The position numbers and the translations under genes were made by a program. From assembly GCF_003852405.1 (NCBI RefSeq), contig NZ_QAJM01000003.1, positions 115,139-179,138 of the forward strand: DNA of 64,000 nucleotides, read 5' to 3'. Source of the DNA: Pseudomonas sp. KBW05. GTDB lineage: Bacteria; Pseudomonadota; Gammaproteobacteria; Pseudomonadales; Pseudomonadaceae. Positions 10,940-30,311 of the stretch are shown in pieces (the stretch's first letter is position 1; each line of letters opens with the position of its first letter). A model generated the notes under the pieces. The model was given only the letters and a program-made list of their open reading frames with translations. It made no database searches and had not been told where the DNA came from.

Positions 10940-12013
10940 TCAAATCAGCCGAGCATCCAACTCCCCCGCCCAAGCCATCAACGCCGCCAGCAAAAAGAAA
11001 CTGCCGCAGGCTGACTCGACTTTGTGCTCCGTCGTCGCCGACGTGCGATAGCAATGTCCGTTGAAACGCCCGTCGACAAAGTCATCGCTGCGCACGATCG
11101 CCGCCAGCAAACGCCCCGCCTCCTGCTGCAACACCTGCCCATCGGCCAGCTCCAGCGCCTGCGCTTGCAGGGCCAGCGACGCCATGGCCGCCGCGCACGG
11201 ATCGTGCGGTCCATCGGGCTGCCCCAGGCGGTTGAGCGGTGCGTGCACCGAGCGGCTGCGCAACCAGTATTGGCTGGCGCGCTGGGCATCCTGGTGGAAT
11301 GGCACACCGTACAGACGCGCACCGACGCCGAGGCCGAGCATGGCCCAGGCTTGCCCACGGGACCAATCGCCCGCAGGGTCGCCAACGTGCCATTGCCCCT
11401 GCTCATCAAGGGCATGGCTGCTCCAGGCGCCCGCCGAACCCGCACAGGCACGAAACGAGGTATGCAGGTGCTGGCGCCCCAAACTCAGCAGGTCAGGGGA
11501 GTTGCCTAATGCGAACAGGTTTAACGTCGCCGCCAGTGGGTCGATGCTTAAGCTACGATCCCCCTGCGCGCCGCCGCCCATCTCACGGCCCAGGGGGATG
11601 CAACCGAGCACCGGATCAAACGCATGGGCCAGGCGCTGTGCGGCCTGTTGCGCCAACTCCGCAGCTTCGGGATCCGCCAATAACTGCGCGCCAAGACCAG
11701 CGCCATACCAGAAGATCAAGCTGCGGTGATGGGTATCGCTGTCGAGCTTGTCGCGCAGGCGTTCAGCAATCCTTAGCGCTTGTTGCCGATCCGCCTGGCG
11801 CCCGTAATGGACGGCGCGCAGCCACCACAACCCCGCCCAGAAACCACCCAGCCACGAGCCACCGGCCGAGACTTTCCAGGCGCCGTCGTTGTACAGCGGG
11901 AAACCCTCGCCACAGACCGCCTCGATCTGCTCCAGTCGAGACAGGATCGCCTCGATGGCGCGCTGCGTCTCGGCACTGTTGAGCGGCCGGTCCAACACTT
12001 CGAACGCGCTCAT
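10940..12013 (-). CDS. GH88-like six-hairpin glycosidase-family protein in a metallophore locus
   Basis: A 357-residue cytoplasmic protein resembling family 88 (unsaturated glucuronyl hydrolase) alpha/alpha-barrels. It shows a helix rich in W and G (GGSWLGGFWAGLWWL, about 51-65) and the clear family segment GDWSRGQAWAMLGLG. The position of the second catalytic aspartate appears kept (D158 in SIDPLAAT), but the usual His-Asp of the first one reads HRSLIF (R97), so a normal hydrolase function is doubtful. The start overlaps the stop of the MFS gene by 4 bp (ATGA), showing translational coupling; the longer frame further upstream is only the MFS gene read in another frame. Why such a protein belongs to this locus is unknown. 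Confidence 0.7.
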   Translation of the reverse strand: MSAFEVLDRPLNSAETQRAIEAILSRLEQIEAVCGEGFPLYNDGAWKVSAGGSWLGGFWAGLWWLRAVHYGRQADRQQALRIAERLRDKLDSDTHHRSLIFWYGAGLGAQLLADPEAAELAQQAAQRLAHAFDPVLGCIPLGREMGGGAQGDRSLSIDPLAATLNLFALGNSPDLLSLGRQHLHTSFRACAGSAGAWSSHALDEQGQWHVGDPAGDWSRGQAWAMLGLGVGARLYGVPFHQDAQRASQYWLRSRSVHAPLNRLGQPDGPHDPCAAAMASLALQAQALELADGQVLQQEAGRLLAAIVRSDDFVDGRFNGHCYRTSATTEHKVESACGSFFLLAALMAWAGELDARLI

Positions 12014-13164
12014 TTGACCACCTGCAAACCCGGCGCCGCGCGCACCCGCGTCAGTACCAGGCTCAGCCCACAGGCCAGCAGCACCACGCCGATGGGCATC
12101 CACCAGGACTGGCCGAACACCAGCCCGAACAACGGCGGCCCCAGCGCAAACCCGCCGAAAAAGCCCACCGACAGCAACCCCGCCGACGGCGCCGGCGCGC
12201 CGAAACCGGGGTCGCGCAGCACCATGCTCATGGCGATGGCATTGGTCGCCACTGCCGTCAGGCCCATGCCCAGCGCACCGGCCCACAGCAGCCAGTGACG
12301 CGCGGGCGTGGCCTGGGCGGTCAGCCACAACGCCACGCTCGCCAACAGCAGCAACACCAGCAACAGCCACGATTCATCGGCCATGCGCGCGCCCAACGGC
12401 GTCAACAGCGTGCGCGCAACAATGCCCATCACGCCGAAGCCGGCGATCAAGCCGCCGATGGCCGTGGCCGACATGCCCTGCCCGGCGGCGAACACACCGA
12501 GAAAGGTCACGAAGGACGACAACACCACGCCCACGCACAGCTGGATACTCATCAACACAGCCAGGCGCGCCGTCGGCCGCGCTACCCGCAAACTCAGCGG
12601 TTTGCGCGCCGATGCCGCTGGCGCCACACGCGGCCCCAACACCGCCAGCAGCAACGCCGGCAGCAGCAGGCACGCCAACGCCCCGCGCCAACCGAAACCC
12701 AGCGCCAAGCCCGGCAACAACGCCCCGGCAAACAACGCCGAGACCTGCACCCCGGACTGCTTCAACCCGACCACCGCCGCCTTGAACGCTGGCTCGACGC
12801 GCTCGGCAATCAGCAGATTGGTCACCGGGTTGGCCAACGCCTGGGCAATCCCGCACACCGTCAGCGCCAGCACCACACCCGCAAATCCCGGCAAAGCGGC
12901 GAGCAGGCTGTAGGAGCACGCCGTGCTCCAGAACAACAACGCCAGGCCACGCCGGCTGCCCAGCCAATTGACCAGCGGCCCGGCCCACAACGACAGCAAC
13001 GCCGCGAAACCAAAGGTGCTGGTGATCAACCAACCGAGCCACGGCGTCGGCACGCCAAGATCGGCGATCATCAACGGGCCGAGGGTGCCGACCGCGTAGA
13101 AGATCAGCATCGGCAGGGCCATGGCGCAGGTCAGCACCACGCGCAACCACAGGCTATGGGTCAT
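12010..13164 (-). CDS. MFS transporter, probable exporter
   Basis: A 384-residue major facilitator with about twelve hydrophobic segments and no large loops. It begins with a loop-helix pattern typical of drug/metabolite exporters (YAVGTLGPLMIADLG near the start). It sits inside the biosynthetic block, coupled at both ends by ATGA overlaps (acyl-CoA dehydrogenase-like gene upstream, GH88-like gene downstream). A second, different MFS gene lies in the receptor block at 24938-26167, so one plausible split is export here and uptake there; this is inference. Confidence 0.8.
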   Translation of the reverse strand: MTHSLWLRVVLTCAMALPMLIFYAVGTLGPLMIADLGVPTPWLGWLITSTFGFAALLSLWAGPLVNWLGSRRGLALLFWSTACSYSLLAALPGFAGVVLALTVCGIAQALANPVTNLLIAERVEPAFKAAVVGLKQSGVQVSALFAGALLPGLALGFGWRGALACLLLPALLLAVLGPRVAPAASARKPLSLRVARPTARLAVLMSIQLCVGVVLSSFVTFLGVFAAGQGMSATAIGGLIAGFGVMGIVARTLLTPLGARMADESWLLLVLLLLASVALWLTAQATPARHWLLWAGALGMGLTAVATNAIAMSMVLRDPGFGAPAPSAGLLSVGFFGGFALGPPLFGLVFGQSWWMPIGVVLLACGLSLVLTRVRAAPGLQVVK

Positions 13165-14297
13165 CCCCGCGCTCCAACCGACGGCAGGTCGAAGTCCAAC
13201 CCGTCCACGCCACAGCTATCGAGCAACTGCCGGCCGACCGCACTGATAAGCGCATCGTCGGTGCCATCGAGAATATGCGTGGTGCGCGCGGTGTTGTAGA
13301 TGCCCGGCAGTGGCGACCACGCGCTCAAGCCTTCGGCGCCCATGATCTGGATCGCCGAATCCGCCGCCGCGCTCAACGCCTGGGACGCCGCGACCTTGGC
13401 GATATTCACTTCAACACTGTTGGCCACGCCCGCATCGCGTTTGGCCGCCGCGTCCTGCAACAACAACCGCGCACTGGCGATGGCCTGGTACACGCTGAAC
13501 ACCCGCAGGCGCACCAACTGCTTGTCGGCCAGCCGCGCCTGCTGGCCACGGGCCGAATGAATGCGCGCGCACATCAGGTCGAAACAACGCTGGGCCAAGC
13601 CCAGCCAATGCACCGAACGCAGGATGCGCCCCAAGCCCAGGCGCTCCTGCATCAGCGCCAGCCCTTGCCCCGGCTGGCCCAGCACATAGGCCGGCGCCAC
13701 CGGCACATCGTCAAAGGCCAACTCGCCCTGGCCACTGAAGCGGCCAAGGATCGACAACGGCCGCACCACGCGAAACCCCGGCGCATCCGCTGGCACCAGG
13801 AACATCGACAAGCCCTGCGCCGTCTGCGCCACCACCGTGACCAACGCCGCCCGCTCGGCGCGGCAGATAAACCATTTGCGCCCGTTCAAGCGCCACTGGC
13901 CGTCGATCAGTTCCGCGTGCGCGGTGATCGTCGCCGGGATCGAACCGATGCTGTCCGGCTCGGACATGCCGTAGCTCGACACCATCGCCCCACTCGCCAA
14001 CGGTTCCAGGAAGCGCTGGCGCACCGCCTCGCTGGCGTGGCGAGTGAGCATGTGCAGATCCAGGGTGGCGTCATCGCCGAAGATCGCCGGGGCGTATTCC
14101 GAACGCCCCTCCTGTTCGGCCACCGCCAGGTAATCGCGCAAGCTGCCAGCGGTGTGCGGATAAAAACTACCCCACAACCCTTCGGCCCGCGCCTGCTCGC
14201 TCAGCTCGGCCAGCAATTGCGGATTGCTGGCCAACTCACCTTCCACGGGGATGATGCGCTCATCGACAAACTGCCGTACCCGCTGCGCCTTCAACAT
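13161..14297 (-). CDS. Acyl-CoA dehydrogenase-like flavoprotein
   Basis: A 378-residue member of the acyl-CoA dehydrogenase superfamily. The FAD-binding stretch SSYGMSEPDSIGS corresponds to the usual M-T-E-P-x-x-G-S, and the C-terminal helical domain is present (IMGAEGLSAWSPLPGIYNTAR). At the place of the catalytic glutamate (E-G-T in standard enzymes) the sequence reads HILDGTDDA, with D344 instead of Glu. Family knowledge suggests oxidation of an activated acyl substrate, perhaps an aromatising step. The start overlaps the AMP-ligase stop by 7 bp; the stop overlaps the MFS start by 4 bp. Confidence 0.85.
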   Translation of the reverse strand: MLKAQRVRQFVDERIIPVEGELASNPQLLAELSEQARAEGLWGSFYPHTAGSLRDYLAVAEQEGRSEYAPAIFGDDATLDLHMLTRHASEAVRQRFLEPLASGAMVSSYGMSEPDSIGSIPATITAHAELIDGQWRLNGRKWFICRAERAALVTVVAQTAQGLSMFLVPADAPGFRVVRPLSILGRFSGQGELAFDDVPVAPAYVLGQPGQGLALMQERLGLGRILRSVHWLGLAQRCFDLMCARIHSARGQQARLADKQLVRLRVFSVYQAIASARLLLQDAAAKRDAGVANSVEVNIAKVAASQALSAAADSAIQIMGAEGLSAWSPLPGIYNTARTTHILDGTDDALISAVGRQLLDSCGVDGLDFDLPSVGARG

Positions 14298-15940
14298 GCG
14301 ATGCCCGCCCCGCTTTCGAGGAACGCCACTTCGGCGGCCAGGGATTTCTTGTCGATCTTGCCCGCTGGCGTCAGCGGCAATTGGCGATAGAAACGCAGGT
14401 ACTCCGGCAGCTTGTTCACCTCCAGCCCTTGCTCACGCAGGTAGTCGGTCAACTCGCTGAGGGAGAAACGCGCGGCGCCGTCTCGCAAGGTCACGCAGAT
14501 GCAAACGCGTTGGCCGAGGTCCGGGTCAGGTACCGCCACGCACGCGACGCTGACCACGTCCGGGTGGCTGGTGGCCAGGGTTTCGATCTGCACCGGGCTG
14601 ATGTTCGCGCCGCCGCGGATGATGATGTCTTTCTTGCGCCCGGCCAAAATCAGGTAGCCATCACTGTCGATGTAACCGAGGTCGCCGGTATTCACCCAGC
14701 CTTCGGCGTCGCGGTACTGCGCGTCGAGTTCCGGCGCATTCACGTACTGCATCGGGCTCAACGGGCCGCGCGCCTTGATTTCGCCGACGCTGCCCTGGGG
14801 CAATTCCACGCCGTCTTCGTCAAAGATCTTGATCGCACACACCGCCGGGTTCGGCCGGCCGACGCTGTAGAACACCACATCCAGCGCATCGTCCAGGGTG
14901 TTGTGACAGTTCACCCCGTCGGCGGAACCGTAGAGGCTGATAAAACCGCAACCGAACGCCTCGACACAGCGGCGCACGGTGACTTCATCGATCAGCGAAC
15001 CGCCGCAAATCAGCCCGAGCAGGCTGGATTTATCCACCTGCGCCAACCGCGCATCGGCAGCGATACGTTGCAACATGGTCGGCACGCCGAGGATGTGGGT
15101 CGGGCGCAATTGGGCGATGGCGTCGATAGCCGCCGCGACATCGAATTGCGGCAACACCGCAATCGAACCGCCGAGCCAGGACAGGCTGCCAAAGGTCGCC
15201 GTCGAACCAAACGACGAACCCAGCGGCACCAGGTACAGGCCACGGAACGTACCGCCCTCGGGGTGCACACGTTGCAGGAAGCGCCCGCGCCCGCCAACCA
15301 GGGCGTTGTGGGAATAGGCGACCAATTTAGGCTCCGACTCGGTGCCGGAGGACACCAGCAAGCGCACCGGAGAATTCGGGCACACCTCGGGCAATTGCGC
15401 TGCGCTCAAGGGCTCGGCCTGGAACATCTGCTCCAGGCTCAGCCATCCTTTGCGCGCCTCGCCTTCGACGATCAGCACGCGCAGCGACAACAACGTCGGG
15501 CGCAGGGCTTCGATGACCTGGCACAAATCGATGCCGGCGTACTGCGCCGGCACGATCACCGCCCGCGCATCGCAACGGCGCACCAGGGATTGAATGTCGA
15601 GGCTGCCGCGCCCCGGTGGAAACGGCGCGACCACGGCGCCCAGCGCCGCAGCGGCGAGGTCGATGGCGCAACTGCGCCAGCTGTTGGTCAGTTGATACGC
15701 CACCACGTCACCGGCGACGATGCCCGCATTGCGCAAACTGGCGGCCATGCGCAGCGCCGCTGCGTGCAGCTCGCCGTAGGTAACGCTGCTGTCGGGTTCG
15801 AGCACCGCCGGTTTGTGCGGGTCGCGTTCGGCGTGTTCACGAAACAGTTGGTACACCGAACGGTTGGGGTAAGTGCCGTCCTGTTCCCACACGCTGCGCA
15901 CAGCGGCGGGAACCAGATCGATAATGCCTGCGTTATTCAT
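14291..15940 (-). CDS. AMP-dependent acid-CoA ligase / adenylating enzyme
   Basis: ANL-superfamily adenylating enzyme of 549 residues. Core motifs are visible: a P-loop variant SSGTESEPK (197-205), YGSADG, and the hinge region NTGDLGYIDSDGYLILAGRK; a C-terminal lysine occurs in TPAGKIDKKSL. It should activate a carboxylate as acyl-AMP. In PDTC and thioquinolobactin loci the corresponding ligase activates the carboxylate that then receives sulfur from the thiocarboxylated ThiS-like carrier, and the same role is inferred. The start ATG at 15940 overlaps the CaiB-like stop (ATGA); a 17-codon upstream extension of the frame is not used by the family. Confidence 0.88.
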   Translation of the reverse strand: MNNAGIIDLVPAAVRSVWEQDGTYPNRSVYQLFREHAERDPHKPAVLEPDSSVTYGELHAAALRMAASLRNAGIVAGDVVAYQLTNSWRSCAIDLAAAALGAVVAPFPPGRGSLDIQSLVRRCDARAVIVPAQYAGIDLCQVIEALRPTLLSLRVLIVEGEARKGWLSLEQMFQAEPLSAAQLPEVCPNSPVRLLVSSGTESEPKLVAYSHNALVGGRGRFLQRVHPEGGTFRGLYLVPLGSSFGSTATFGSLSWLGGSIAVLPQFDVAAAIDAIAQLRPTHILGVPTMLQRIAADARLAQVDKSSLLGLICGGSLIDEVTVRRCVEAFGCGFISLYGSADGVNCHNTLDDALDVVFYSVGRPNPAVCAIKIFDEDGVELPQGSVGEIKARGPLSPMQYVNAPELDAQYRDAEGWVNTGDLGYIDSDGYLILAGRKKDIIIRGGANISPVQIETLATSHPDVVSVACVAVPDPDLGQRVCICVTLRDGAARFSLSELTDYLREQGLEVNKLPEYLRFYRQLPLTPAGKIDKKSLAAEVAFLESGAGIAC

Positions 15941-17748
15941 CGAAAACTCCAGTGAGCGTTGACCGAGGTATAGGCATTCACGCTTAAACACGTCTTCAAT
16001 CGCCTGTCTTGAGCCAGGGCTGACAGGTCTTCTACGGCCACCACGGCCGGGATGTCGGCGGCGCCCAGCACCTGTTGCCAGGTAGCGGCGGGTTGCGACG
16101 CCAAGGCGCTGCGGATTGCTGCATCGCTATGCAAGTCGCAGGCGAGGATGTTTTCCAGCTGTGCAAGTTGCGCCGGAGTCTGGCAGTCGATGGCCAGCAC
16201 GCCGTCGGCGGTCGGGTAGACGCCCTTGAGCAGGCTCTGTGTGGGCGCGTCCTGCACCGTCAGCAGGTTGGCGGTGCCCAGCAGCGAGCTATCGACCCGC
16301 GCACCCTGGCCGCTAAGGGCACGATGCAGCAATGCCGCACTCACGCCTTGCGCCGCGACCACACCGCCCAGCACATCGAGCACGGTGAACAACGAACCGC
16401 CCGGCGTGGCCGAAGCCTGGCCGATCTGTTCGCCGACGCCGGACCAGGCTTGCACCATAAAGTCGGTGCCGGGCAGCGGTTCGCCCGGGCGGTCGTGGCC
16501 CCAACCGCCGGCGTAGGCGTACACCAGCGCCGGGTTGATGCGCAGCAGGTCGGCGCTGTCCAAGCCCAGCTCGGCGGCCTTGCCCGGCGCCCAGTTGTGC
16601 AGGAACACATCGGCGTCACGCACCCGTTCAAACAGTTCGTCGCGACCGGCGCGGGACTTGATGTCCAACTCCCGCACCTGCTTGTGCCGGTTCAGCGCAT
16701 CGAAGCGCACCGACACGCCCTCCACACACGGCGGCATGCCGCGCAGCGGGTCACCACCAGGCAATTCGAGGCGGATCACCTCGGCGCCCAACATCGCCAG
16801 CAGATGCCCGGCCAGCGGGCCCTGGATACGGCGGCAGGATTCGATCACGGTGAGGCCGCTCAACGGCAACGCCGGGTTGTTCAGGCCACGCAATGGCTGG
16901 CCGCCGGCAGCGACGGCAAAGCTCCACGGGCCTTGGGCGATTTGCGCGGGCAGATCCGCATCGCCACGACGCTCGGCGAGGCTGCGCAACGGGCACACCG
17001 CCATGCCGCTCAAGGCGCACAACGCGGTGATGCGCGCCATCGACAAGCGCGCCATGGCCTGGCGAAACACCGGCGGCATCGGCGCGACGGCTTTGGCATA
17101 GCGCAGCAGGAAGGCTTTCCAGCCCTGTCCGGCCTGTTCGCCGTCGATGCCGACCTGCGCCCAGAAGCGCCGCCACGGCTCGGCGTCGAGGGTTTCCAAT
17201 TCAAAATACACGCCGTCCGCCGACATGAACGGCGGGCGATTCTTTGCGCACGTCGCCCCCGGCAACAGGTGTTCGGCTTCAGCACCCGCCGTGGCACCGG
17301 CCAGGTATTGAGCGATGCTCAACACGCCGGCGCCGGCCATGGCGGTGTCCACGCGGCTGAAATCGCCACCGCGCAGTTGCCCGACGGCTGCGGCCAACAC
17401 GCCTTGCAGCGCGAGGCTGGCGCCGAGGGTGGAGACGTAATCCACGCCCAGCCCCTGGACCTTGCCGCTGGCCCGGCCGTGCACCGACATCAAGCCGCAG
17501 GCCGCTTGCACCGTGTGTTCGGTGGCGCCGGCGGACGTGCCGTCGGCCCAGCCGTGAATCACGCCCTGCACCGACTTGAGGTCAGGGTGATGCAAGCCCA
17601 TGCGCATGGCATCGCGCTTATCGCTGTCATGGGGCGCCAGGCCCAGCGCCGTCGCCTGGTAGCGCAGTGACGCGGCCAAGCTGGCCATCCCGGCCGGTGC
17701 GCCGGTAAACGTGCCGCTGAGGCTACAGCCATGTAGAAGTGCAGACAT
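15937..17748 (-). CDS. Double-length CaiB/BaiF-type CoA-transferase-like protein
   Basis: At 603 residues this is about one and a half to two times a single family III CoA-transferase. The C-terminal half (from about residue 300, SGLTVIESCRRIQGPLAG) is recognisably CaiB-like and keeps the catalytic aspartate, D458 in FTVLDVLGG. The N-terminal half contains a parallel segment (DYVSTLGAS...VDTAMAG, matching TVLDVLGGV...VDSSLLG) where the aspartate is replaced by S106. I read this as an internal duplication with one dead copy. Expected reaction: transfer of CoA between acids. CaiB-like proteins are, to my memory, also part of PDTC loci. It is coupled to the ligase by ATGA and follows the ThiS-like gene by 86 bp. 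Confidence 0.8.
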   Translation of the reverse strand: MSALLHGCSLSGTFTGAPAGMASLAASLRYQATALGLAPHDSDKRDAMRMGLHHPDLKSVQGVIHGWADGTSAGATEHTVQAACGLMSVHGRASGKVQGLGVDYVSTLGASLALQGVLAAAVGQLRGGDFSRVDTAMAGAGVLSIAQYLAGATAGAEAEHLLPGATCAKNRPPFMSADGVYFELETLDAEPWRRFWAQVGIDGEQAGQGWKAFLLRYAKAVAPMPPVFRQAMARLSMARITALCALSGMAVCPLRSLAERRGDADLPAQIAQGPWSFAVAAGGQPLRGLNNPALPLSGLTVIESCRRIQGPLAGHLLAMLGAEVIRLELPGGDPLRGMPPCVEGVSVRFDALNRHKQVRELDIKSRAGRDELFERVRDADVFLHNWAPGKAAELGLDSADLLRINPALVYAYAGGWGHDRPGEPLPGTDFMVQAWSGVGEQIGQASATPGGSLFTVLDVLGGVVAAQGVSAALLHRALSGQGARVDSSLLGTANLLTVQDAPTQSLLKGVYPTADGVLAIDCQTPAQLAQLENILACDLHSDAAIRSALASQPAATWQQVLGAADIPAVVAVEDLSALAQDRRLKTCLSVNAYTSVNAHWSFR

Positions 17749-17834: not shown

Positions 17835-18107
17835 TCAGCCGCCCGCGACAGCCGGCAGGATGGTGATGGCGTCACCGGCCTTGAGCGCGGTGCCCAGGTT
17901 GTCGGCGAAACGGATGTCGTCATCGTTGACGTAGATGTTCACGAAGCGATGCACCTGGCCGTCGCCAATCAAGCGATCCTTGACGCCTGGGTATTCGCGT
18001 TCCATCTGTTCGATCACTTCCAGAACAGTGTTGCCTTGCACTTCCACGCGCTTCTGATCCTGGGTAAAAGAGCGCAATAAAGTGGGCACCATCACGGAAA
18101 TCGACAT
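17835..18107 (-). CDS. ThiS/MoaD-like sulfur carrier protein ending in Gly-Gly
   Basis: A 90-residue ubiquitin-fold sulfur carrier. It begins MSISVMVPTLLRSF and has the MoaD-like ending DAITILPAVAGG followed directly by the stop codon, so the C-terminal Gly-Gly is already exposed. The adjacent MoeZ-like enzyme should adenylate this glycine and convert it to a thiocarboxylate that donates sulfur to the small-molecule acid. The start at 18107 follows AAGGAG. This differs from QbsE of thioquinolobactin, which carries extra residues after Gly-Gly. Confidence 0.92.
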   Translation of the reverse strand: MSISVMVPTLLRSFTQDQKRVEVQGNTVLEVIEQMEREYPGVKDRLIGDGQVHRFVNIYVNDDDIRFADNLGTALKAGDAITILPAVAGG

Positions 18108-18151
18108 GCAGAACTCCTTGGGCCTTAGTTGGCCCATTGATTAATTTCGGT

Positions 18152-18559
18152 TTAATTAACGATGTAGATAACTTCTTCAGTCACTTTGCGTTGCACGATA
18201 CGAAAACTGCGCACTGCAACTTCAACTTCCGGCAATGTTGAAACAATCACGTAGTGCACCGATGGATCACCGGCATAACTCACATCTTCCGCACTGGGGT
18301 AGGCCACGCTGGCGGTGTGGGAGTGGTAGATCACCCGGCACTCTTCGTCCCGTTCATCGAGTTCGCGCCACACCGCCAATTGCTGCTTGGGGGCGAAGCT
18401 GAAGAACGTTTCGGAGCGCGCCGCGTTGTCCATCGCCACCAGGCGTTCGGCGGTTGGCTCACCCACGGGCGCAGCGATGATGCCGCAGGTTTCCAGCGGG
18501 TGATCGCGGTGCGCCTGTTCCAACATGGCCTCCAGCAGGCCGGCACGCAGCTTCAACAT
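18152..18559 (-). CDS. JAMM/Mov34 zinc metalloprotease-like protein
   Basis: A 135-residue JAB1/MPN domain protein. The zinc motif is complete: E23 (LETCGII), H79-x-H81 (YHSHTAS), S89 and D92 (PSAEDV). In thioquinolobactin synthesis the homologue QbsD trims the carrier protein to expose Gly-Gly. Here the carrier already ends in Gly-Gly, so this enzyme must do something else, such as freeing the carrier from conjugates, or be a leftover. It lies 5 bp after the MoeZ-like gene and 44 bp before the carrier gene. Confidence 0.92.
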   Translation of the reverse strand: MLKLRAGLLEAMLEQAHRDHPLETCGIIAAPVGEPTAERLVAMDNAARSETFFSFAPKQQLAVWRELDERDEECRVIYHSHTASVAYPSAEDVSYAGDPSVHYVIVSTLPEVEVAVRSFRIVQRKVTEEVIYIVN

Positions 18560-18564
18560 GGCCG

Positions 18565-19737: not shown

Positions 19738-19757
19738 CACGAATACCTGTTTCTGAA

Positions 19758-22483: not shown

Positions 22484-22503
22484 GGGAGCGTGTCCTCTGT
22501 GTT

Positions 22504-24906
22504 TCATTGACGGTTCCAGGCGGTTTCGGAGACCAGGCTCAAGCCGTCGCCTTCCGAGTTGTGGGCCAGCAATACGTCGAAGATATTCAGTTGCCCGGGT
22601 TGGGTCAGGGCGTTGCGCAGGTGCGCTTCATCGAAGCGCACCTGCCGCTCGCGGTGCAGGTTGATCGTGCCGATGCGCTGCACGGGTTGCGTCGCGGCGG
22701 CGCGGGTGCTGACGGCGACCTGTTGCGCGCCGTTGTGGGCGTAGCGCTTGTCGAGGTAGGTCTGGATCAGCGAGAGCACACCGTTGCTGAGGTAGAACAA
22801 GGTCACGTTGCGCGCAGGGTCAGTCAGGCCTTGGGCCAGGCGCGCTTCGATGTCCGGCACCAACGCCCGGGCGCCGTCGCCGACAAACGCCAGCACGTTG
22901 CCGCTGCCGGTCATGGCGATATACGGCAAGGCCATCAGGCCGTCGCCCATCAACGCGCGGCCATACCAGCCGGAGAACCCCGGATCGGTGCGCGGCACGT
23001 TGCGCAACGCCGAGATGGCGCCACGGCCGACGTCGTACACACCGATGTAGCGGTAGTCGTGTTGCTCGATGAGTTCGCGCACCAGGTTGCCCAGGCGGCG
23101 GAAGAAGTAGTTGGAGGTCATCGGCAGGGTTTCGATATGGTCCGCCGCCACGCTTTCGCTGGTGGCGGCCACTTGCGCCAGCTTGGCGCGGCGCAGGGCG
23201 AGCACCACGGGTTCGACCTGCAAGCCGCGCTCGATGTGATCGAGGAACACGTCCAGCGGCACGTCCAGCGCCAGGTCGGTGAACGGCGACAAGTGCCGGG
23301 GTTCATGGTTGACCTGCACCACCCGCAACTGGCGCTTGAGCTTGCCTTCGGAGAACGGCGTGGCGGCCTGGTCGACCTTGCCCTTGAGGAAGAACACGCA
23401 GTGGCTGTGCGGCCCGTTCAGTTCGTGGTCGGTGTGCACGAACTGGTAGACCCGGCGACTGAAACCATACAACGACAAGGGCCCGAGGTAGTTCGGCACC
23501 TTGCGACCCTGGTGATACGGACCGACGCTGCCCGGCTGGGTAATGCTGTCGGACAGCGCAATCGCGCCGCGCTCGGCCAGAGCATGCACGCGTTGGCGCT
23601 GTTGCTCGCTGAGCTTGCCGCACTGCCAGAGCAAGTGCAGCGGCTGGCGGTTGATCAGGTCCAAGGCCTGGTCCAGCGCTTCGAGTTGCGCGCTGCTTAG
23701 GTTTACCTGCGCAGTCGTTGGCAAGGCCGGCAGCGCCACATTCAACGGCACTTGCGGACGCGATTCGAGCACGCCTTGGGTGGCCAGGATAAACACCGGC
23801 TCGGCACGTTCGGCGAGCATGGCGAAGGCTTGCTCCAGGCAGGCGCCGATCTCCTCGACCTTGCGGATGAACACCTGGCGCAGACCCTTGGCTTCGATGA
23901 CCTGGCGTCCGTCGTTGTCGTTGTCGTGGGTGCCCTGGAACGCGTACCAGACGTTTTCCGGGCTGTCGGCGCAGATGATCAGGCCCGGCGCGCCGATGCG
24001 CTTGAGGTTGGCCAGGGTGCCACGAAACTCGTCGATCATGCCCGAGGTCACGGTGATCACATAGGCGCGGCCAAACAACTGCCAGCCGGCCATGGCACCC
24101 ACCGCCAGGCTGTGTTCGTTGCAACCGCTGAGGCAACGCACGCCGGTGCCGGCGACGTTTTGCTGCATCGACTGGATCAGGCCCGCGACCATCGAACCGG
24201 TGTAGGCGTGAAAGTCCCAGCGCTCCTGCCAGCGGCTGTGCATAAAGCGCGTGACCTCGGTGGCCAGGCTCACCGACAGCAACGGACCGCTGATGGAACG
24301 GGCGAGCAAGCGGTTGAAGTGGGCATGCTCCAGATGGTCGAGGATGATGCGCAGCAGGTCGGCACGGCGCGCAGCGCGGTCGTCGTTGGCCACGCGCAGG
24401 TGGCGGTTGCCGCCGACGCGGTTCATCCAGCCGGGCAAGGCCGACAAGGCGCAGTACAGCACGGCCGAATGGGGCGACAGACGCGCATTCGGCGCGGCGG
24501 CGATCAGCGCGTCGAACGGATCGTCCATGCCCGCCTCGGCTTGTTCGCCAAGGTCGAGGATGAACAGTTCGTTGGACAACGGCGGGCTTTGCTGACGCAA
24601 GCGTGCCTTCGCGGCCTCCACCGAATCGAAGCTCATCAACCACATGTCCGGCAACGCCGCCGCATGCGCCGGGCTGCCTTGCAGGTAGCGCTGGGCCTGG
24701 ACCATCAGGGTTTCCAGTACCGCATCGCTGCGCGGTCGGGGGCCCAGGGCCTGGTGCATTTCTTCGCAGTCGCCAGCGGTCACGGGCCAGTCAGCGGCAT
24801 TCGGCAGCGGTTGCAAACCGGCCTGCAAATGCTCGATGACAAACGTCACGTCCTCAATCAGCGGCTGCGCCTGGGTAATCAAGCAGATTCCTAACGTGGC
24901 CTTCAT
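22504..24906 (-). CDS. Diverged thiamine-diphosphate-type enzyme of unknown reaction
   Basis: An 800-residue protein that I do not recognise as a named family. About the first 220 residues match nothing known to me. The middle resembles a ThDP pyrimidine-binding domain (GCNEHSLAVGAMAGW, with E264 in the place of the activating glutamate), and the C-terminal part has a ThDP-binding motif GDGARALV starting at 676 and ending near LFYLSNGVLS. Such enzymes decarboxylate 2-oxo acids or join carbon units. It ends just before the reductase-aminotransferase gene, so it may supply or extend that enzyme's substrate. The start is MKATLGICLI at 24906; the longer frame runs into the MFS gene. Confidence 0.6.
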   Translation of the reverse strand: MKATLGICLITQAQPLIEDVTFVIEHLQAGLQPLPNAADWPVTAGDCEEMHQALGPRPRSDAVLETLMVQAQRYLQGSPAHAAALPDMWLMSFDSVEAAKARLRQQSPPLSNELFILDLGEQAEAGMDDPFDALIAAAPNARLSPHSAVLYCALSALPGWMNRVGGNRHLRVANDDRAARRADLLRIILDHLEHAHFNRLLARSISGPLLSVSLATEVTRFMHSRWQERWDFHAYTGSMVAGLIQSMQQNVAGTGVRCLSGCNEHSLAVGAMAGWQLFGRAYVITVTSGMIDEFRGTLANLKRIGAPGLIICADSPENVWYAFQGTHDNDNDGRQVIEAKGLRQVFIRKVEEIGACLEQAFAMLAERAEPVFILATQGVLESRPQVPLNVALPALPTTAQVNLSSAQLEALDQALDLINRQPLHLLWQCGKLSEQQRQRVHALAERGAIALSDSITQPGSVGPYHQGRKVPNYLGPLSLYGFSRRVYQFVHTDHELNGPHSHCVFFLKGKVDQAATPFSEGKLKRQLRVVQVNHEPRHLSPFTDLALDVPLDVFLDHIERGLQVEPVVLALRRAKLAQVAATSESVAADHIETLPMTSNYFFRRLGNLVRELIEQHDYRYIGVYDVGRGAISALRNVPRTDPGFSGWYGRALMGDGLMALPYIAMTGSGNVLAFVGDGARALVPDIEARLAQGLTDPARNVTLFYLSNGVLSLIQTYLDKRYAHNGAQQVAVSTRAAATQPVQRIGTINLHRERQVRFDEAHLRNALTQPGQLNIFDVLLAHNSEGDGLSLVSETAWNRQ

Positions 24907-24937
24907 GAACCTATCCCTATTCAAATCAAACTGAGGA

Positions 24938-26167
24938 TCAAATGACCGGCCGCTGCGGGTCGCCGGTGGCCAGCGCAATCGAGCGCCGGGCCAGCACGGC
25001 AACGCCGCACACCAGGGCCATCGCCAGCGACAGGCCGGCGAGCATGCCGACGTGGCCGCTGCGGTCGAGCAGCACGCCAGCGCCGATCGGCACCAACATG
25101 CGCGTCAACACGAACAGGCTGGCCTGCAAGCCGTAGTCGGCGGCCTGGCGATGCTCGCGGGAGAAAAACATCATCAGGGCGAAGACCAGGGTCGATACCG
25201 CGCCCATGGCTGTCGCCAACAGGAACGCCGCCGCCACCAGCCAGACCATGTCGGCACGCAGGCCGACAGCGGCGGTCAGTGCTAATAACGAAATCAACGC
25301 CCACAACATAAACAGTGGAATCGCGCGGCCCGGGCCGATGCGGTGGATCAACCGCCCGCCGAGCAAGCTGGCCACGGCCCCGACCACGCCGCCGCCGACG
25401 CCGGCGATCAGCGCGACTTTCGGCGCGACCATGCCCTGGTCCAGCAGCAGCGGTTTGAGGTACAGCCACGCCGCGCCGACAAACGGAAAACTGGTCAACA
25501 GCACCCAGGTCCACAGCCGTGCGCCGGGTTGGCGGAAGTAACCCGACCAGTCGGCCAGCGCCGGGCTGACCGGCGCGCTAGTGGTGCCTTGCGCATGGCC
25601 TTCACGCAGCCGGGCCAGGGGCAGCAACGCCAGCAGCAAGCCGCCGGCCATCAACAGGAATGGCGCTTGCCAGCCCCAGCGGCTTTGCACCAGCAACATC
25701 ACGCCAGCGCCGACAATCGCGCCGAGAAACAGCGCGGCCGAACGGATGCTGCCGGCGCGCACTTGCTCCGATTGCGGCAGCAACTTGATCGCCAGGGCGT
25801 TGACCGGGATGTCGGCCCAGGTCGCCAACACCGAGGCGGCGAACGCCAGGCCGAACAGGTACAGCGGATTGCCGGTGATCGACAGTTGGCTGGCCGCCAC
25901 CAACAACACCGCCAACAACAGGCACAGCAGCATCGCCCAGTTGCGGTAATGCCCACGCTGGAAGCGATAGCGCTGCACGGGCAGTGCCAGCAGGAACTTG
26001 AACACCGCCGGCAAGCCGGCCAGTTGGAACAGGCCGATGTCGGTGCCCGACCAACCGTGTTCGCGCATCACCAACGGCAGGCCGAGCAGCAGGTAGATGC
26101 TCGGCACCACCAGCACAAAACCGAGCCAGCCGAACAGCAATTGCAGACGCCACATGGAAGGGTTCAT
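24938..26167 (-). CDS. MFS permease, possibly RhtX/FptX-type siderophore uptake
   Basis: A 409-residue major facilitator with about twelve membrane segments. It begins with WRLQLLFGWLGFVLVVPSIYLLLG and has a long periplasmic-free layout like AmpG or RhtX/FptX permeases. The location, in one coupled unit with the TonB receptor and behind a Fur-box, suggests inner-membrane uptake of the ferric complex, as FptX does for pyochelin and PdtE is thought to do for PDTC. The substrate is not shown by the sequence. The start overlaps the methyltransferase stop (ATGA). Confidence 0.75.
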   Translation of the reverse strand: MNPSMWRLQLLFGWLGFVLVVPSIYLLLGLPLVMREHGWSGTDIGLFQLAGLPAVFKFLLALPVQRYRFQRGHYRNWAMLLCLLLAVLLVAASQLSITGNPLYLFGLAFAASVLATWADIPVNALAIKLLPQSEQVRAGSIRSAALFLGAIVGAGVMLLVQSRWGWQAPFLLMAGGLLLALLPLARLREGHAQGTTSAPVSPALADWSGYFRQPGARLWTWVLLTSFPFVGAAWLYLKPLLLDQGMVAPKVALIAGVGGGVVGAVASLLGGRLIHRIGPGRAIPLFMLWALISLLALTAAVGLRADMVWLVAAAFLLATAMGAVSTLVFALMMFFSREHRQAADYGLQASLFVLTRMLVPIGAGVLLDRSGHVGMLAGLSLAMALVCGVAVLARRSIALATGDPQRPVI

Positions 26168-27210
26168 GAGGCGCTCCGGCGAGCCACCAGCACCGAGACG
26201 GGCGCCACGGCAAAGGCCACTTCGGGGTAGCTGTCGATGTGGCTGAAACCGGCCTGTTGCAAAGCGTCACTCAGGCCGCCCGCCTCGGTGACATGGCGAC
26301 CGAGCATTTGCATCGACAGGTAATACGGCATGACGCGCTGGGCGTGTTCGGGGTCGGCGGGGATCTCCGCGTGGGCGCTGATCAGCACGCCACCGGGGCG
26401 CAATGCCGCGTGGATCTTGGCCAGGGTGGCGGGCAGGTCCGGCACGAAGTGCAGCACCGAGGAACACCAGATCACGTCGTAGCCGTCGCCAATCGGGTCG
26501 CTGGCGAGGTTGCCACCGCGCACGCTGAGACGTTGTTCCAGGCCAGCGCGCTGGATGTTGGCGGCGGCCACTTCAACGGTTTTTTCGAAGTCGAAAACTT
26601 CGCCGCTGAGCAGCGGGTTGTCACGCACCAGGGCAATCGCCACCAGGCCAGGACCGCCGCCGAGGTCGAGCAGGCGACGTGCCTGGCTGAACTCCGGGAT
26701 CAGGGCTGTCAGGCGCAGGGCCACGTCAACGGTGACGGCGCGCTGCTCCTGGGCGATTTGCAGGCGCGCGGCGGCGGTCCAGTTGTCGATGGTGGTGGTC
26801 ATGTCGGTGGGTTGGCTGTCGGGCTGGCCGGCGCGCACTTGCTCGCCCAGTTGGTTGCCGAAACGGCGCATGCCGCGCAGGCGAAAGGTCCAGGCGTCGC
26901 CGCAGTAGTCCGTGGCATCGCTGCGCAGGTAATCGCTGGCCACCGGCGTGTTGCGGTACAGCGGCGGCTGGCGTTCATCGCGTTGCAGCAGATCCATGCT
27001 CCACAGGGCTTCGAGCCAGAAGCCGGTGTTGGCCGGGTCGAGTTCCAGTTGCCGGGCGATCAGGTGGGCCGAAGTGGGCACTTGCAACAGGTCGAAGAGT
27101 TTCCATTCCAGCGCAATGCGCAGGGCGTCGGCGCGTACGGCGGACAGGGTCAGATCCCAGAAAGGTTGCAGGGCATGTGGGGTGGACAGATTCATAGGTT
27201 TATCGCTCAC
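26164..27210 (-). CDS. SAM-dependent methyltransferase, O-methyltransferase type
   Basis: A 348-residue protein with an N-terminal helical dimerisation/winged-helix part (residues about 1-110) and a class I SAM-binding domain with LLDLGGGPGLV (about 180-190), followed by the acidic strand EVFDF. This arrangement is that of plant-type and polyketide O-methyltransferases. It may methylate an oxygen or sulfur of the product or of a shunt product. The frame starts with GTG at 27210 overlapping the receptor stop; ATG at 27195 is an equally possible start. Confidence 0.85.
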   Translation of the reverse strand: MSDKPMNLSTPHALQPFWDLTLSAVRADALRIALEWKLFDLLQVPTSAHLIARQLELDPANTGFWLEALWSMDLLQRDERQPPLYRNTPVASDYLRSDATDYCGDAWTFRLRGMRRFGNQLGEQVRAGQPDSQPTDMTTTIDNWTAAARLQIAQEQRAVTVDVALRLTALIPEFSQARRLLDLGGGPGLVAIALVRDNPLLSGEVFDFEKTVEVAAANIQRAGLEQRLSVRGGNLASDPIGDGYDVIWCSSVLHFVPDLPATLAKIHAALRPGGVLISAHAEIPADPEHAQRVMPYYLSMQMLGRHVTEAGGLSDALQQAGFSHIDSYPEVAFAVAPVSVLVARRSAS

Positions 27211-29183
27211 AGTTCATAGCTGAGCCGAAGGCCGACTTCACGGCCCGGGCTGTACACGCGGGTGGTGCCATTCAGGTAGCCGACGGCGTCGTAGCGCTTG
27301 TCGGCGGCGTTGTTCACGTAGGCGCTGATGCCGTAGTGGCTGAAGTCATAGCCGGCAGTCATGTCGATCAGGCCGTAGCCGCCACGGCTGTATTGGTTGG
27401 CGGCGTCGAGGTAGGTCTTGCCGACGGCGCTGACGCCGCCCTGGGCGTACCAGCCGGCAGGCGCGTCGTAGCGCAGGCTGAGGTGGCCGGTGAGGTCCGG
27501 CGCGTAGGGGTTGTGATTGCCTTTGTAGTCGTTGCTGCCTTCACTGAACTGCTTGAAGCGCGTGCGGTTCAGGCCCACGGAACTGACCACGCGCCAGTCG
27601 TCGGCGACGAGGTAGTCAGCCTCCAATTCAAGCCCGGTGGAGCGCGCGGTGGCGGCGTTGGTGATGTACACCACGCCGGGCTGGATGATCTGCTGCACCT
27701 GCATGTCGCGCACGTCCATCAGGTACACGGCGGCCGAGTAGCGCAGGCGTTTGTCGGCGAGCCAGCCCTTGGCACCGAGTTCGTAGGTTTTGACTTTTTC
27801 CGGGTCGTAGCCGGGGTAGTTGGCGACGCTGGAGAAGGCGTTGAACCCGCCGGCGCGGAAGCCTTCGGCGTAGCTGGCGTAGACGTAGGCGTCGGGCTGC
27901 CATTCATATTGCAGCGCGGCCTTGGGGGTGAAGCGTTGCCAGCTGGCGCTCTGGCGGCTGCCGATGGCCGGGTCGATATGCACTTTGTCTTGCTCGGCAC
28001 GGGCGCCGAGGGTGAGGGTCCAGCGCTCGGCCAGGGGCATCAGCCATTGGCCGAACAGTGCGCTGGTGTTGCCGCCCAACTGGCTGGCGGTCTCGGTCAG
28101 GCGCAGCGGCAGTTTTTGCTGGTAGGACAGGTCGTGGTCGTCGCGGTCGGCATAGGCGCCGAGCAGCCACTGGTTGTCGCGCCATTGGCCTTCAAGGCGC
28201 AATTCCTGGGACAGGGTGTTGAAGTGGTAGTCGCGGGCCAGGTGCAGTTGGTCGGCGGGTTGGAAGTCGGTGTCTTGTTGCAGGCGGTCGTAGAAGTCGT
28301 TGCGCGCGGTGATGGAGCGCAGTTTCACCCCGGAGTCGAAGGTGTGTTGCACGTCCAGCGACAGGCTGCGGCCGCTGGAGTGGTTCCAGCTCGGCGTGCC
28401 GGAGCGCACTTCGCGCCGGGTCGAGCTGGCGGCGCCCCATTGTGAGCCGCCATCGCGGTAGTCCTGGCGGCTGTAGCGCAGGTTGACGTCGGTGGCCAGG
28501 GTTGGCGTCCAACGCAGCACCATACGCGCGCTGTGGCGTTCACGGTCATCGGCCTGGCCGCCTTTATAGGCATTGTCGATAAAGCCGTCCTGCTCGCGCC
28601 ATTGGCCGGACACGCCGGCATATAAGGTACCGGGCACCAACGCCGTGCTGGCATCCGCGCTCAGCGTGCGCAGGTCGCGGCTGCCGGTGCCGGCTTCGAT
28701 GCGCGCGTAAGGCGTATCGCCGGGCTGGCGGGTGTGGATGCTCAGTACGCCCGCTTCGGCGTTGCGTCCGTACAGGGTGGACTGCGGGCCGCGCAGGATC
28801 TCGATGCGCTCGACGCCCAGCAGGTTGTGGTCGAAGCCCTGCCCCATCAGGGTCGGCACGCCATCCACGAGCATCAGCATCGAGGAGGAAAACGCCGTCG
28901 CCCCGGAACTCAGGCCACGGACCACCGGCAGGTTGGTGCCGGACTGCCCGAACGGCTGGAAGGTAAAGCCAGGCGTGGTGCGGGCCAGGCGCTCCAGATC
29001 GTCGATATTGCCTTTGCGCAGGTCTTCGCCGGTGATCACCGACAGGCTCGCCGGGACTCCTTCCTGTTCCTGCTCGATCTTGTTGGCCGTGACCTTGACC
29101 GGTGCCAGTTCGGTCTGTGCCATGGCAACGCTTGCGCCGCCCAGCCAACACACCAGCGCACCGCTGAAAACCCCTGTGTTCAA
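27207..29183 (-). CDS. TonB-dependent outer-membrane siderophore receptor
   Basis: A 658-residue receptor precursor with signal peptide (about 1-22, ending SVAMA), a TonB box-like start (LAPVKVTANKI), plug domain with LPVVRGLSSG, VDGVP and the conserved VERIEILRGPQSTLYGRNA, and a C-terminal barrel finishing in SYEL. There is no N-terminal signalling extension, so it is not a cell-surface-signalling receptor; regulation is more likely by the divergent AraC-type protein and Fur. It is first in the minus-strand block and overlaps the methyltransferase gene. Confidence 0.93.
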   Translation of the reverse strand: MNTGVFSGALVCWLGGASVAMAQTELAPVKVTANKIEQEQEGVPASLSVITGEDLRKGNIDDLERLARTTPGFTFQPFGQSGTNLPVVRGLSSGATAFSSSMLMLVDGVPTLMGQGFDHNLLGVERIEILRGPQSTLYGRNAEAGVLSIHTRQPGDTPYARIEAGTGSRDLRTLSADASTALVPGTLYAGVSGQWREQDGFIDNAYKGGQADDRERHSARMVLRWTPTLATDVNLRYSRQDYRDGGSQWGAASSTRREVRSGTPSWNHSSGRSLSLDVQHTFDSGVKLRSITARNDFYDRLQQDTDFQPADQLHLARDYHFNTLSQELRLEGQWRDNQWLLGAYADRDDHDLSYQQKLPLRLTETASQLGGNTSALFGQWLMPLAERWTLTLGARAEQDKVHIDPAIGSRQSASWQRFTPKAALQYEWQPDAYVYASYAEGFRAGGFNAFSSVANYPGYDPEKVKTYELGAKGWLADKRLRYSAAVYLMDVRDMQVQQIIQPGVVYITNAATARSTGLELEADYLVADDWRVVSSVGLNRTRFKQFSEGSNDYKGNHNPYAPDLTGHLSLRYDAPAGWYAQGGVSAVGKTYLDAANQYSRGGYGLIDMTAGYDFSHYGISAYVNNAADKRYDAVGYLNGTTRVYSPGREVGLRLSYEL

Positions 29184-29256: not shown

Positions 29257-29275
29257 ATTAATGCGAATGCTTATC
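29257..29275. promoter_or_regulatory. Fur-box between receptor and AraC-type regulator
   Basis: ATTAATGCGAATGCTTATC matches 13 of 19 positions of the consensus GATAATGATAATCATTATC, counted by eye. It lies 74 bp upstream of the receptor start and 71 bp upstream of the regulator GTG, so it could repress both. This predicts expression under iron limitation. Confidence 0.7.
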
Positions 29276-29286
29276 ATGTATGTCCG

Positions 29287-29309
29287 TATGGATTTCGGAT
29301 CAATCCATA
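29287..29309. promoter_or_regulatory. Inverted repeat, possible regulator operator
   Basis: TATGGATT-N7-AATCCATA, a perfect 8-bp inverted repeat, lies between the Fur-box and the regulator's ribosome binding site. It may be an operator used for autoregulation or a leader hairpin. AraC-type proteins usually bind direct repeats, so the assignment is tentative. Confidence 0.4.
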
Positions 29310-29345
29310 TGCGAATCGGAGCCAAATCTAGGGAGGGCGTTGAAC

Positions 29346-30311
29346 GTGTCGGCTTTACAAAGGATTTCCCAGTCGTATCGAGTCGCGTCAACGCACTCGC
29401 GATTGGTCAGCACGCAAGACTGCGGCTGGATGCGCCAGCAGTTGCCGGAAGAGCTGGGCGAGTGCTATTCGGAACGCCTGACCTTCGACGACGACCTGAT
29501 GGTGGTGCGTTCGCGCTATCGCCCTACGCGCAATTTGATTGAAGAAACCGTCAGCCCGCACAACCGCCACATGCTGGTGATTACCTTCGGCATGCAGGGT
29601 GATTCCGGCTACAAAGGCGCGGATGGCGCTGCGGTGTCGTTCAGGGCGGGCTTTACCACGATCACCTCGTTCCAGCTCAGCCTGGGTGAACGCTGCTATG
29701 AGGCGGGTGCGACGGTGTCGCAACTGCGGTTGTTGATTGGCGAGAGCATGCTCACCAAGTACATCGGCGAGCAGCGCACCCAGCAGATCCTCGGCAACGG
29801 CAACGTGCGCCAACTGGCGTTCCAGAAGACCTCGGCCGCCAGCGCCAGCCACGCCAGCGCCTTGACCCGCTACCTCAACCACGGCGTGACCGGCACGCTG
29901 GACATGCACATCCACACCCTGAGCCTGCTCTCCGAACAGCTCAAGCTGCTGAGCCCCGACACCCTGCCGGAAAGCCTGCAATTCAGCGCCGCCGACATCG
30001 AGAAACTTGAGCGTGCGCGCGACATCATGATCGAGCAGATGGACCAACCGCTGACCATCCCCTATCTCTGTGCGGCGGTTGGGCTCAACGAGTTCAAGCT
30101 CAAGGAAGGCTTGCACTACCGCTTCAACTCCACCCCGCACCGCATGCTCAACGAGATTCGCATGCGCAAGGCCTACACCCTGCTGGAAAGCGGTTGCCAA
30201 GTGGCGCAGGCGGCCTACCAGGTGGGGTACAAATTCCCGAACAACTTCAGCGCGGCGTTTACGCGATTCTTCGGCAAGACGCCGAAGTCAGTGTTTGGCA
30301 AACGCCGCTGA
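29346..30311 (+). CDS. AraC-family transcriptional regulator, PchR/PdtC-like
   Basis: A 321-residue regulator with a ligand-binding N-terminal half and a C-terminal double helix-turn-helix (IPYLCAAVGLNEFKLKEG, then GYKFPNNFSAAFTRFFGKTP). This C-terminus resembles PchR-type activators that sense their siderophore in the cytoplasm. The open frame begins at an ATG (29280), but that overlaps the end of the Fur-box and has no ribosome site, whereas GTG at 29346 follows GGGAGG at 29331-29336 with 9-base spacing; I use the GTG. It is divergent from the receptor block and convergent with the kinase-like gene, 5 bp away. Confidence 0.88.
   Translation: MSALQRISQSYRVASTHSRLVSTQDCGWMRQQLPEELGECYSERLTFDDDLMVVRSRYRPTRNLIEETVSPHNRHMLVITFGMQGDSGYKGADGAAVSFRAGFTTITSFQLSLGERCYEAGATVSQLRLLIGESMLTKYIGEQRTQQILGNGNVRQLAFQKTSAASASHASALTRYLNHGVTGTLDMHIHTLSLLSEQLKLLSPDTLPESLQFSAADIEKLERARDIMIEQMDQPLTIPYLCAAVGLNEFKLKEGLHYRFNSTPHRMLNEIRMRKAYTLLESGCQVAQAAYQVGYKFPNNFSAAFTRFFGKTPKSVFGKRR

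What the first reader, a model, noticed from the sequence alone, without database searches (positions are those of the whole stretch)
10940..30311. Thiocarboxylate-type metallophore locus with unfamiliar extra enzymes
Seen: AraC regulator, TonB receptor, two MFS transporters, methyltransferase, AMP-ligase, and a MoeZ/JAMM/ThiS sulfur-transfer trio in one co-directional locus with a Fur-box. Known: this core is shared by PDTC and thioquinolobactin loci. Unexplained by those pathways as I know them: a reductase-aminotransferase fusion, a ThDP-type enzyme and a GH88-like protein. No kynurenine-pathway genes are present, which argues against thioquinolobactin. Inference: an iron-regulated thiocarboxylate metallophore, possibly new.
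Basis: partly seen in the sequence, partly recalled or inferred. Interest (0 to 1): 0.88.

Follow-up and report, generated by a model that had tools for sequence, protein, structure and literature searches.

The report
PDTC locus with alkyl-pyrroline enzymes
This is the known gene set for the sulfur-containing metal chelator PDTC, and two odd enzymes inside it look like the missing makers of fatty-chain pyrrolines that PDTC-linked Pseudomonas strains are known to release.

Summary
The genes described are there, but the locus is not new. Thirteen of its 14 genes match, in family and order, the pdt locus printed for P. fluorescens/kilonensis F113 (pdtCKPELMFGHIJON, PSF113_2605-2618). The product is therefore most likely PDTC.

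The "unfamiliar extras": the reductase-aminotransferase fusion (PdtM) is a PigE-family enzyme and the ThDP enzyme (PdtL) a PigD relative. In prodigiosin synthesis PigD and PigE make a 5-methyl-4-alkyl-3,4-dihydro-2H-pyrrole. Long-chain versions of that compound are reported from P. putida DSM 3601 (a PDTC strain) and, among four strains, only from F113, the one listed with pdt; in F113 they rise together with PDTC derivatives. My searches found no paper linking them to pdt genes.

PdtM's two catalytic residues are kept in 60 of 60 rows, PdtL models as a ThDP enzyme, PigB is absent, and PdtL-PdtM stand alone in six loci.

I propose that pdt is a two-product locus: PDTC plus alkyl-pyrrolines. 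No mutant supports this yet. The main rival is that PdtL/PdtM serve PDTC itself, because in Pseudomonas the two modules nearly always co-occur.

The parts
29280..30311 (+). PdtC: AraC-family regulator
   Evidence: Pfam HTH_18; letter by position in the printed F113 order
29257..29275 (+). Fur-box-like site between pdtC and pdtK
   Evidence: 13 of 19 to a recalled consensus; a 13-of-19 site in 8 of 13 other C-K gaps
27207..29183 (-). PdtK: TonB-dependent receptor
   Evidence: Pfam Plug and TonB_dep_Rec_b-barrel
26164..27210 (-). PdtP: methyltransferase; proposed S-methylation of the thiocarboxylates
   Evidence: Pfam Methyltransf_2 and Dimerisation; m/z 198 and 228 from F113 fit S-methyl thioesters
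24938..26167 (-). PdtE: MFS transporter
   Evidence: Pfam MFS_1
22504..24906 (-). PdtL: PigD-related ThDP enzyme; proposed acetyl transfer from pyruvate to a 2-enoyl thioester
19985..22507 (-). PdtM: PigE-family thioester reductase / aminotransferase fusion
   Evidence: NCBIfam PigE 1422.8 bits, cut-off 850; PDB 4ppm E 2.8e-290; reductase Cys and PLP Lys kept in 60 of 60 rows
18565..19794 (-). PdtF: MoeZ-like E1 with rhodanese domain
   Evidence: Pfam ThiF and Rhodanese
18152..18559 (-). PdtG: JAMM/JAB protease
   Evidence: Pfam Prok-JAB; motif HSHTASVAYPSAED at residue 79
17835..18137 (-). PdtH: ThiS/MoaD-like sulfur carrier ending in bare GG
   Evidence: Pfam ThiS; C-terminus AVAGG
15937..17748 (-). 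PdtI: two-domain class III CoA-transferase
   Evidence: Pfam CoA_transf_3
14291..15991 (-). PdtJ: AMP-forming acyl ligase, not fused to a methyltransferase
   Evidence: Pfam AMP-binding and AMP-binding_C
13161..14297 (-). PdtO (by position): acyl-CoA dehydrogenase family
   Evidence: Pfam; close relatives occur with F-J and not beside stand-alone L-M
12010..13164 (-). PdtN (by position): MFS transporter
   Evidence: Pfam MFS_1
10940..12013 (-). 14th gene: GH88-fold protein, one of two catalytic Asp replaced

Best explanation
This is a pdt locus of a Pseudomonas, and it makes two kinds of product. (1) PDTC: a dipicolinate-type acid is activated by PdtJ and PdtI and receives sulfur from the PdtF/PdtG/PdtH carrier system. 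The chelator is exported and taken up with the help of PdtE/PdtN and PdtK, under PdtC and probably Fur control. PdtP may S-methylate the thiocarboxylates. (2) Alkyl-pyrrolines: PdtL adds an acetyl unit from pyruvate to the beta carbon of a long-chain 2-enoyl thioester. PdtM reduces the thioester to an aldehyde and transaminates it; the amine closes on the ketone to give a 5-methyl-4-alkyl-3,4-dihydro-2H-pyrrole. With no PigB present, the product stays a dihydropyrrole. Shown here: gene content, order, catalytic residues, predicted fold, absence of PigB, stand-alone L-M pairs. From print: PigD/PigE chemistry in Serratia and the metabolites in F113 and DSM 3601. Inferred: that PdtL/PdtM make those metabolites, the source of the enoyl thioester, the transporter roles and PdtP's role.
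For: Gene order equals the printed F113 pdt order. F-J families equal those listed for PdtF-J. PdtM passes the PigE cut-off. PigE's reductase Cys296 (named in PMC8341465) and the Lys645 of its SK motif (PLP role recalled) are kept in 60 of 60 rows, 57 of them different. PigE converts the 3-acetyl thioester to the dihydropyrrole in lysate (PMC8341465, whole text). C11:0, C13:1 and C15:1 dihydropyrroles were reported only in F113 of four strains, F113 being the one listed with pdt, and earlier in P. putida DSM 3601 (PMC7415375); DSM 3601 is the subject of a PDTC paper whose title I saw in reference lists. Wheat extracts raise PDTC derivatives (m/z 198: 930-, 927- and 358-fold) and the pyrroles (m/z 280: 46-, 29- and 44-fold) in F113 (PMC7911646, passages). 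Chains C11, C13:1, C15:1 equal C14:0, C16:1, C18:1 acyl chains minus three carbons, as H2MAP's C5 is C8 minus three; masses fit. PigB, PigC and PigF homologues: in 0 of 31 pdt or stand-alone loci, in 22 of 24 others; best PigB match in the own genome 27.5 bits over 84 residues. Only one full-length PigE-type protein in the own genome. Stand-alone L-M in six loci, two of them near-identical.
Against: No mutant or enzyme assay. Protein sequences of KC, DSM 3601 and F113 were not in a collection that I could address by name, so letters are assigned by position, and it is not shown that DSM 3601 carries L and M. PdtL is below the PigD cut-off (660.4 vs 950 bits) and 34% identical to L041 PigD over the alignment. 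In 399 Pseudomonas genomes PdtI and PdtM co-occur in 17, with one of each alone. The two pdt-type loci with F-J but no L-M (L081, L092) have a split PdtI frame and may be decaying. So L-M could be needed for the thiocarboxylate product. Purified PigE alone did not give the dihydropyrrole. F113 pyrroles rest on MS/MS comparison with 1986 data, and three uncharacterised compounds of that network occur in all four strains.
Confidence: 0.72

Rival explanations
1. PdtL and PdtM act in PDTC synthesis itself, for example in building or tailoring the pyridine or the thiocarboxylate, and the dihydropyrroles are made by other genes.
For: PdtM and PdtI co-occur in 17 of 399 Pseudomonas genomes, with one of each alone; PdtM and PdtJ are in the same 2 of 56 genomes of the genus of G953. 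Both pdt-type loci seen without L-M (L081, L092) have a split PdtI frame.
Against: Six loci carry L-M with none of the other pdt genes within the fetched stretch; of these only G132 was checked genome-wide: one contig, no PdtI at E 1e-60, best PdtJ match 29%. PigD/PigE chemistry gives a five-membered ring. The metabolite predicted from that chemistry is known from F113 and DSM 3601.
Confidence: 0.15
2. The final product is a conjugate in which a dipicolinate thiocarboxylate is joined to the alkyl-pyrroline; PDTC and free pyrrolines are fragments or by-products.
For: Tight co-occurrence and joint rise in F113; an acetyl derivative of a pyrroline is tentatively reported, so acylation may occur.
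Against: No such compound is mentioned in the passages read; PDTC derivatives and pyrrolines are described as separate compounds.
Confidence: 0.08
3. A new thiocarboxylate metallophore other than PDTC.
For: The 14th gene (GH88 fold) and the acyl-CoA dehydrogenase have no assigned step.
Against: Gene set and order equal the printed F113 pdt locus, and that strain yields PDTC derivatives.
Confidence: 0.05

Closest known systems
pdt locus of P. fluorescens/kilonensis F113 (lettered after P. stutzeri KC)
   Same: Thirteen lettered genes in the same order; F-J families as printed; 14 locus tags
   Different: Only positions and families could be compared, not sequences; no letter is left for the 14th gene in print
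PigD and PigE of prodigiosin synthesis (L041, taken as Serratia 39006)
   Same: PdtM has the same domain fusion and both catalytic residues; PdtL shares the family profile in part and the ThDP residues
   Different: pdt M plus stand-alone M form their own group (36 rows) beside the prodiginine-type group (24 rows), SH-aLRT 100; PdtL below the PigD cut-off; no PigB, PigC or PigF partners; longer acyl chains expected
Quinolobactin-type loci (L084 in G073, L093 in G829; type name recalled)
   Same: MoeZ, JAMM, ThiS, CoA-transferase, ligase, TonB receptor, MFS and AraC homologues
   Different: Ligase fused to a methyltransferase and a class I aminotransferase nearby; ThiS ends GGCF in L084 and is extended in L093; no L, M, O or 14th-gene match
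GH88 unsaturated glucuronyl hydrolase (PDB 2fv0, 1vd5)
   Different: The second catalytic Asp aligns to a Ser that is invariant in 19 of 19 pdt proteins

Membership tests
PDTC (pdt) locus | Gene set and order pdtCKPELMFGHIJON | tested here: met
   Families in order match the printed order; letters L, M, N, O, P assigned by position only
PDTC (pdt) locus | PdtF-J: E1-rhodanese, JAB, ThiS-like, CaiB-like, AMP-ligase | tested here: met
   Pfam against the families named in PMC1779556
PDTC (pdt) locus | Protein identity to the characterised P. stutzeri KC or P. putida DSM 3601 genes | not tested
   Those sequences were not in a collection that I could address by name
PDTC (pdt) locus | Makes PDTC under iron limitation | not testable with these tools
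   Needs culture and LC-MS
Thioquinolobactin (qbs) locus | Kynurenine-pathway genes and ligase-methyltransferase fusion (fusion recalled) | tested here: not met
   None among the hits of the 14 genes; PdtJ has no methyltransferase domain, unlike L084 and L093
PigE (thioester reductase-aminotransferase) | NCBIfam NF053554 cut-off, reductase Cys296, PLP Lys645 | tested here: met
   1422.8 bits vs 850; residues in 60 of 60 rows
PigD (prodigiosin) | NCBIfam NF053552 cut-off | tested here: not met
   660.4 bits vs 950; so PigD-related, not filed as PigD
ThDP-dependent decarboxylase superfamily | Fold, catalytic Glu, GDG...N motif (motif recalled) | tested here: met
Prodiginine locus | PigB, PigC and PigF partners | tested here: not met
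   0 of 31 pdt or stand-alone loci
GH88 unsaturated glucuronyl hydrolase | Fold | tested here: met
GH88 unsaturated glucuronyl hydrolase | Both catalytic Asp (D88, D149 of the Bacillus enzyme; roles recalled) | tested here: not met
   D149 aligns to D158, D88 to S98

The most novel reading that the evidence does not exclude
Pdt loci are two-product loci: the pdtL-pdtM pair is the unrecognised biosynthetic unit for the (+)-3,4-dihydro-5-methyl-4-alkyl-2H-pyrroles described from P. putida in 1986. It couples a thiocarboxylate chelator with a fatty-chain cyclic imine in one regulated locus, and the pair also occurs alone, as a two-gene unit, in a Pseudomonas and in Pectobacteriaceae.
Probability: 0.68. 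Interest if true: 0.65.

Novelty: new member of a known kind. Interest (0 to 1): 0.55.

Why it matters
It would give genes to a natural-product family for which my searches found none in print. It would explain why strains tied to PDTC release alkyl-pyrrolines, and it warns that automatic names ('prodigiosin PigE') can mislead here. It also splits pdt genes into a chelator set and a pyrroline set, so that mutants can be read correctly. A chelator and a lipophilic imine made together suggests joint action in the rhizosphere, which single-gene deletions could now test.

Tried and rejected
New metallophore: rejected because the gene set and order are printed for F113. Thioquinolobactin: rejected (no kynurenine families, no fused ligase). 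Prodiginine: rejected (no PigB/C/F). GH88 sugar hydrolase for the 14th gene: fold yes, function doubtful (one Asp replaced); a ring hydration/dehydration role is only a guess and was not tested. Acyl-CoA dehydrogenase (O) as supplier of the 2-enoyl thioester: considered and not favoured, because no O relative was seen beside any of the six stand-alone L-M pairs, while O is present in both L-M-less loci and absent from L090; but in L026 and L050 a distant relative (29-30%) follows M, so this is open. Integration repeat at the tRNA-Lys: longest shared word 9 bases. Phylum draw for PdtI: 2 of 398, both of the own genus. Plasmid search for PdtM: 6 records, all under 60% identity. PdtL against PDB sequences: no match alone, weak as a profile (best E 0.0012, acetolactate synthase). 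Fur-like sites upstream of stand-alone L-M: 12 of 19 at best in 5 of 5, and 17 sites score exactly 12 in the window, so no signal.
Full report
What is there. The region holds 14 genes: an AraC regulator on + and 13 genes on the minus strand. The GH88-like gene probably starts near 12013 and the ThDP gene near 24906. A Fur-like site lies at 29257-29275. A 13-of-19 site recurs in 8 of 13 other C-K gaps; in six loci with P next to C, a different 12- or 13-of-19 site lies in the C-P gap (6 of 6).

What it is. PMC3570484 and PMC7415375 (passages) print the F113 pdt locus as pdtCKPELMFGHIJON, PSF113_2605-2618: 13 letters and 14 locus tags. The window gives AraC, TonB receptor, methyltransferase, MFS, ThDP enzyme, reductase-aminotransferase, E1-rhodanese, JAMM, ThiS, CoA-transferase, AMP-ligase, acyl-CoA dehydrogenase, MFS and a 14th gene. 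PMC1779556 (passages) names PdtF-J as exactly the five families found at F-J. PdtC, PdtK and PdtE as regulator, receptor and permease are recalled; only citations of that work were seen. L090, from another genus of the family, runs C | E F G H I J K L M N + 14th gene, which would fit letters given along the KC sequence; L091 departs from the alphabet (P before E; O before N in L020), so this is only a hint. I could not compare KC or F113 proteins directly.

Distribution. Of 78 loci returned for PdtM (the best 80 of 111 relatives were kept), 54 (L002-L055) match along both domains at 50% identity or more, although M is short in L048 and L049; L057 also spans both domains at 29% and was left out. 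Twelve of the 54 carry all 14 genes in window order, and L023 carries all 14 with K moved. In 399 genomes of the window's genus (Pseudomonas, judged from named relatives), PdtI was found in 18 at E 1e-60 and PdtM in 18 at E 1e-150, both in 17 (Fisher p about 1e-27, but genomes are related and not independent). In 56 genomes of the genus of G953, PdtM and PdtJ are in the same 2. In a family draw of 298, PdtI was in 11: four of these (G000, G083, G112, G248) have PdtM, five more (G1003, G789, G802, G953, G965), and G788 and G829 do not. G829's locus (L093) is quinolobactin-type. Some genomes appear under two names (L015/L087, L023/L085, L002/G302, L020/L091, L010/L094, L009/L095), judged from equal contig lengths or coordinates.

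What they probably make. PMC8341465 (whole text) shows that Serratia PigE in cell lysate turns a 3-acetyl thioester into 5-methyl-4-pentyl-3,4-dihydro-2H-pyrrole; purified PigE with NAD(P)H did not. PigB then oxidises this to the pyrrole (PMC7065143, passages). PigB, PigC and PigF homologues are found together in 22 of 24 other loci (one of them L041, the source of the queries; not in L036 and L040) and in 0 of 31 pdt or stand-alone loci; weak PigA matches of 23-28% in some pdt loci are acyl-CoA dehydrogenases. The best PigB match in the own genome is 27.5 bits over 84 residues. So a dihydropyrrole end product is predicted. Such compounds, with C11:0, C13:1 and C15:1 chains, were reported in F113 and not in three other strains, and had been isolated from P. 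putida DSM 3601 by Hildebrand and Budzikiewicz in 1986 (PMC7415375, section 9 read in full; the 1986 paper itself not seen). F113 is the only strain of the four listed with pdt. Wheat root extracts raise PDTC derivatives and these pyrroles in F113 (PMC7911646, passages; PMC8955329, passages). In what I read, these papers do not tie the pyrroles to pdt genes. My searches for such a link found none in the held library, which lacks most subscription journals.

Two modules. Stand-alone L-M pairs occur in Brenneria, two Pectobacterium, Lonsdalea, Pelomonas and one Pseudomonas genome, G132. The neighbours examined, at four of the six (L080, L028, L018, L049), are response regulator, PLP decarboxylase, biopterin hydroxylase-like, MFS, exonuclease, solute-binding and beta-propeller proteins and one without a family. 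G132 has no PdtI at E 1e-60 and no PdtJ better than 29% over most of its length; the other five genomes were not searched whole. In L026 and L050, N and the 14th gene lie between J and L-M, and in L019 L-M are divergent from F-J. Against full independence, the two pdt-type loci with F-J and no L-M, L081 and L092, both show a split PdtI frame, so intact F-J without L-M was not seen among the pdt-type loci I examined.

The methyltransferase. F113's two PDTC derivatives judged genuine have m/z 198 and 228, while 182, 196 and 212 were methanol artefacts. Computed masses fit S-methyl thioesters for 198 and 228, O-methyl esters for 182 and 196, and a mixed O-/S-methyl ester for 212. S-methylation by PdtP is my inference. 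PdtP was not found in L019, L024-L026, L050, L090 and L092, though several of these stretches may end too early, as L020's did (P is found in L091, the same contig).

The sulfur carrier. PdtH ends in bare GG in 28 of 29 pdt-type loci examined (L081 ends GGAR); of the two quinolobactin-type loci L084 ends GGCF and L093 is longer. A JAMM gene is present all the same.

Verdict. The locus is a new strain's copy of a known kind. The new point is the link between pdtL-pdtM and the alkyl-dihydropyrroles, well supported by anatomy and printed metabolite data but untested by mutation.

Noticed in passing
L081:5862-7775 and L092:9554-11372: Both pdt-type loci without L-M have the PdtI reading frame split near residue 385, at nearly the same place.
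   Followed up: partly
L084 (G073, second locus) and L093 (G829): Quinolobactin-type loci; G073 carries both a pdt and a quinolobactin-type locus.
   Followed up: partly
window 10940-31396: The locus lies between fadL/nadA and tRNA-Lys (31321-31396)/queC with higher GC (64.8% vs 59.8% for the rest of the window) and GC3 (83% vs 73%), suggesting horizontal gain; no integration repeat found.
   Followed up: partly
L036 and L040: PigD/PigE-type loci of Microbulbifer halophilus and Photobacterium lipolyticum without PigB, PigC or PigF in the fetched stretch; product unknown.
   Followed up: no
L026 and L050, downstream of M: A distant acyl-CoA dehydrogenase (29-30% to PdtO, 28% to PigA) follows L-M in Microbulbifer harenosus and Hahella ganghwensis.
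   Followed up: no
hits H3-H5 (Thioclava plasmids): Large Thioclava plasmids carry a full-length PigE relative at 55% identity.
   Followed up: no
window 19985-22507: The NCBIfam PigE model scores PdtM far above its cut-off, so automatic annotation may call it a prodigiosin enzyme.
   Followed up: yes
L080:14895-16935: PLP decarboxylase and biopterin hydroxylase-like genes lie beside the stand-alone L-M pair of G132.
   Followed up: no
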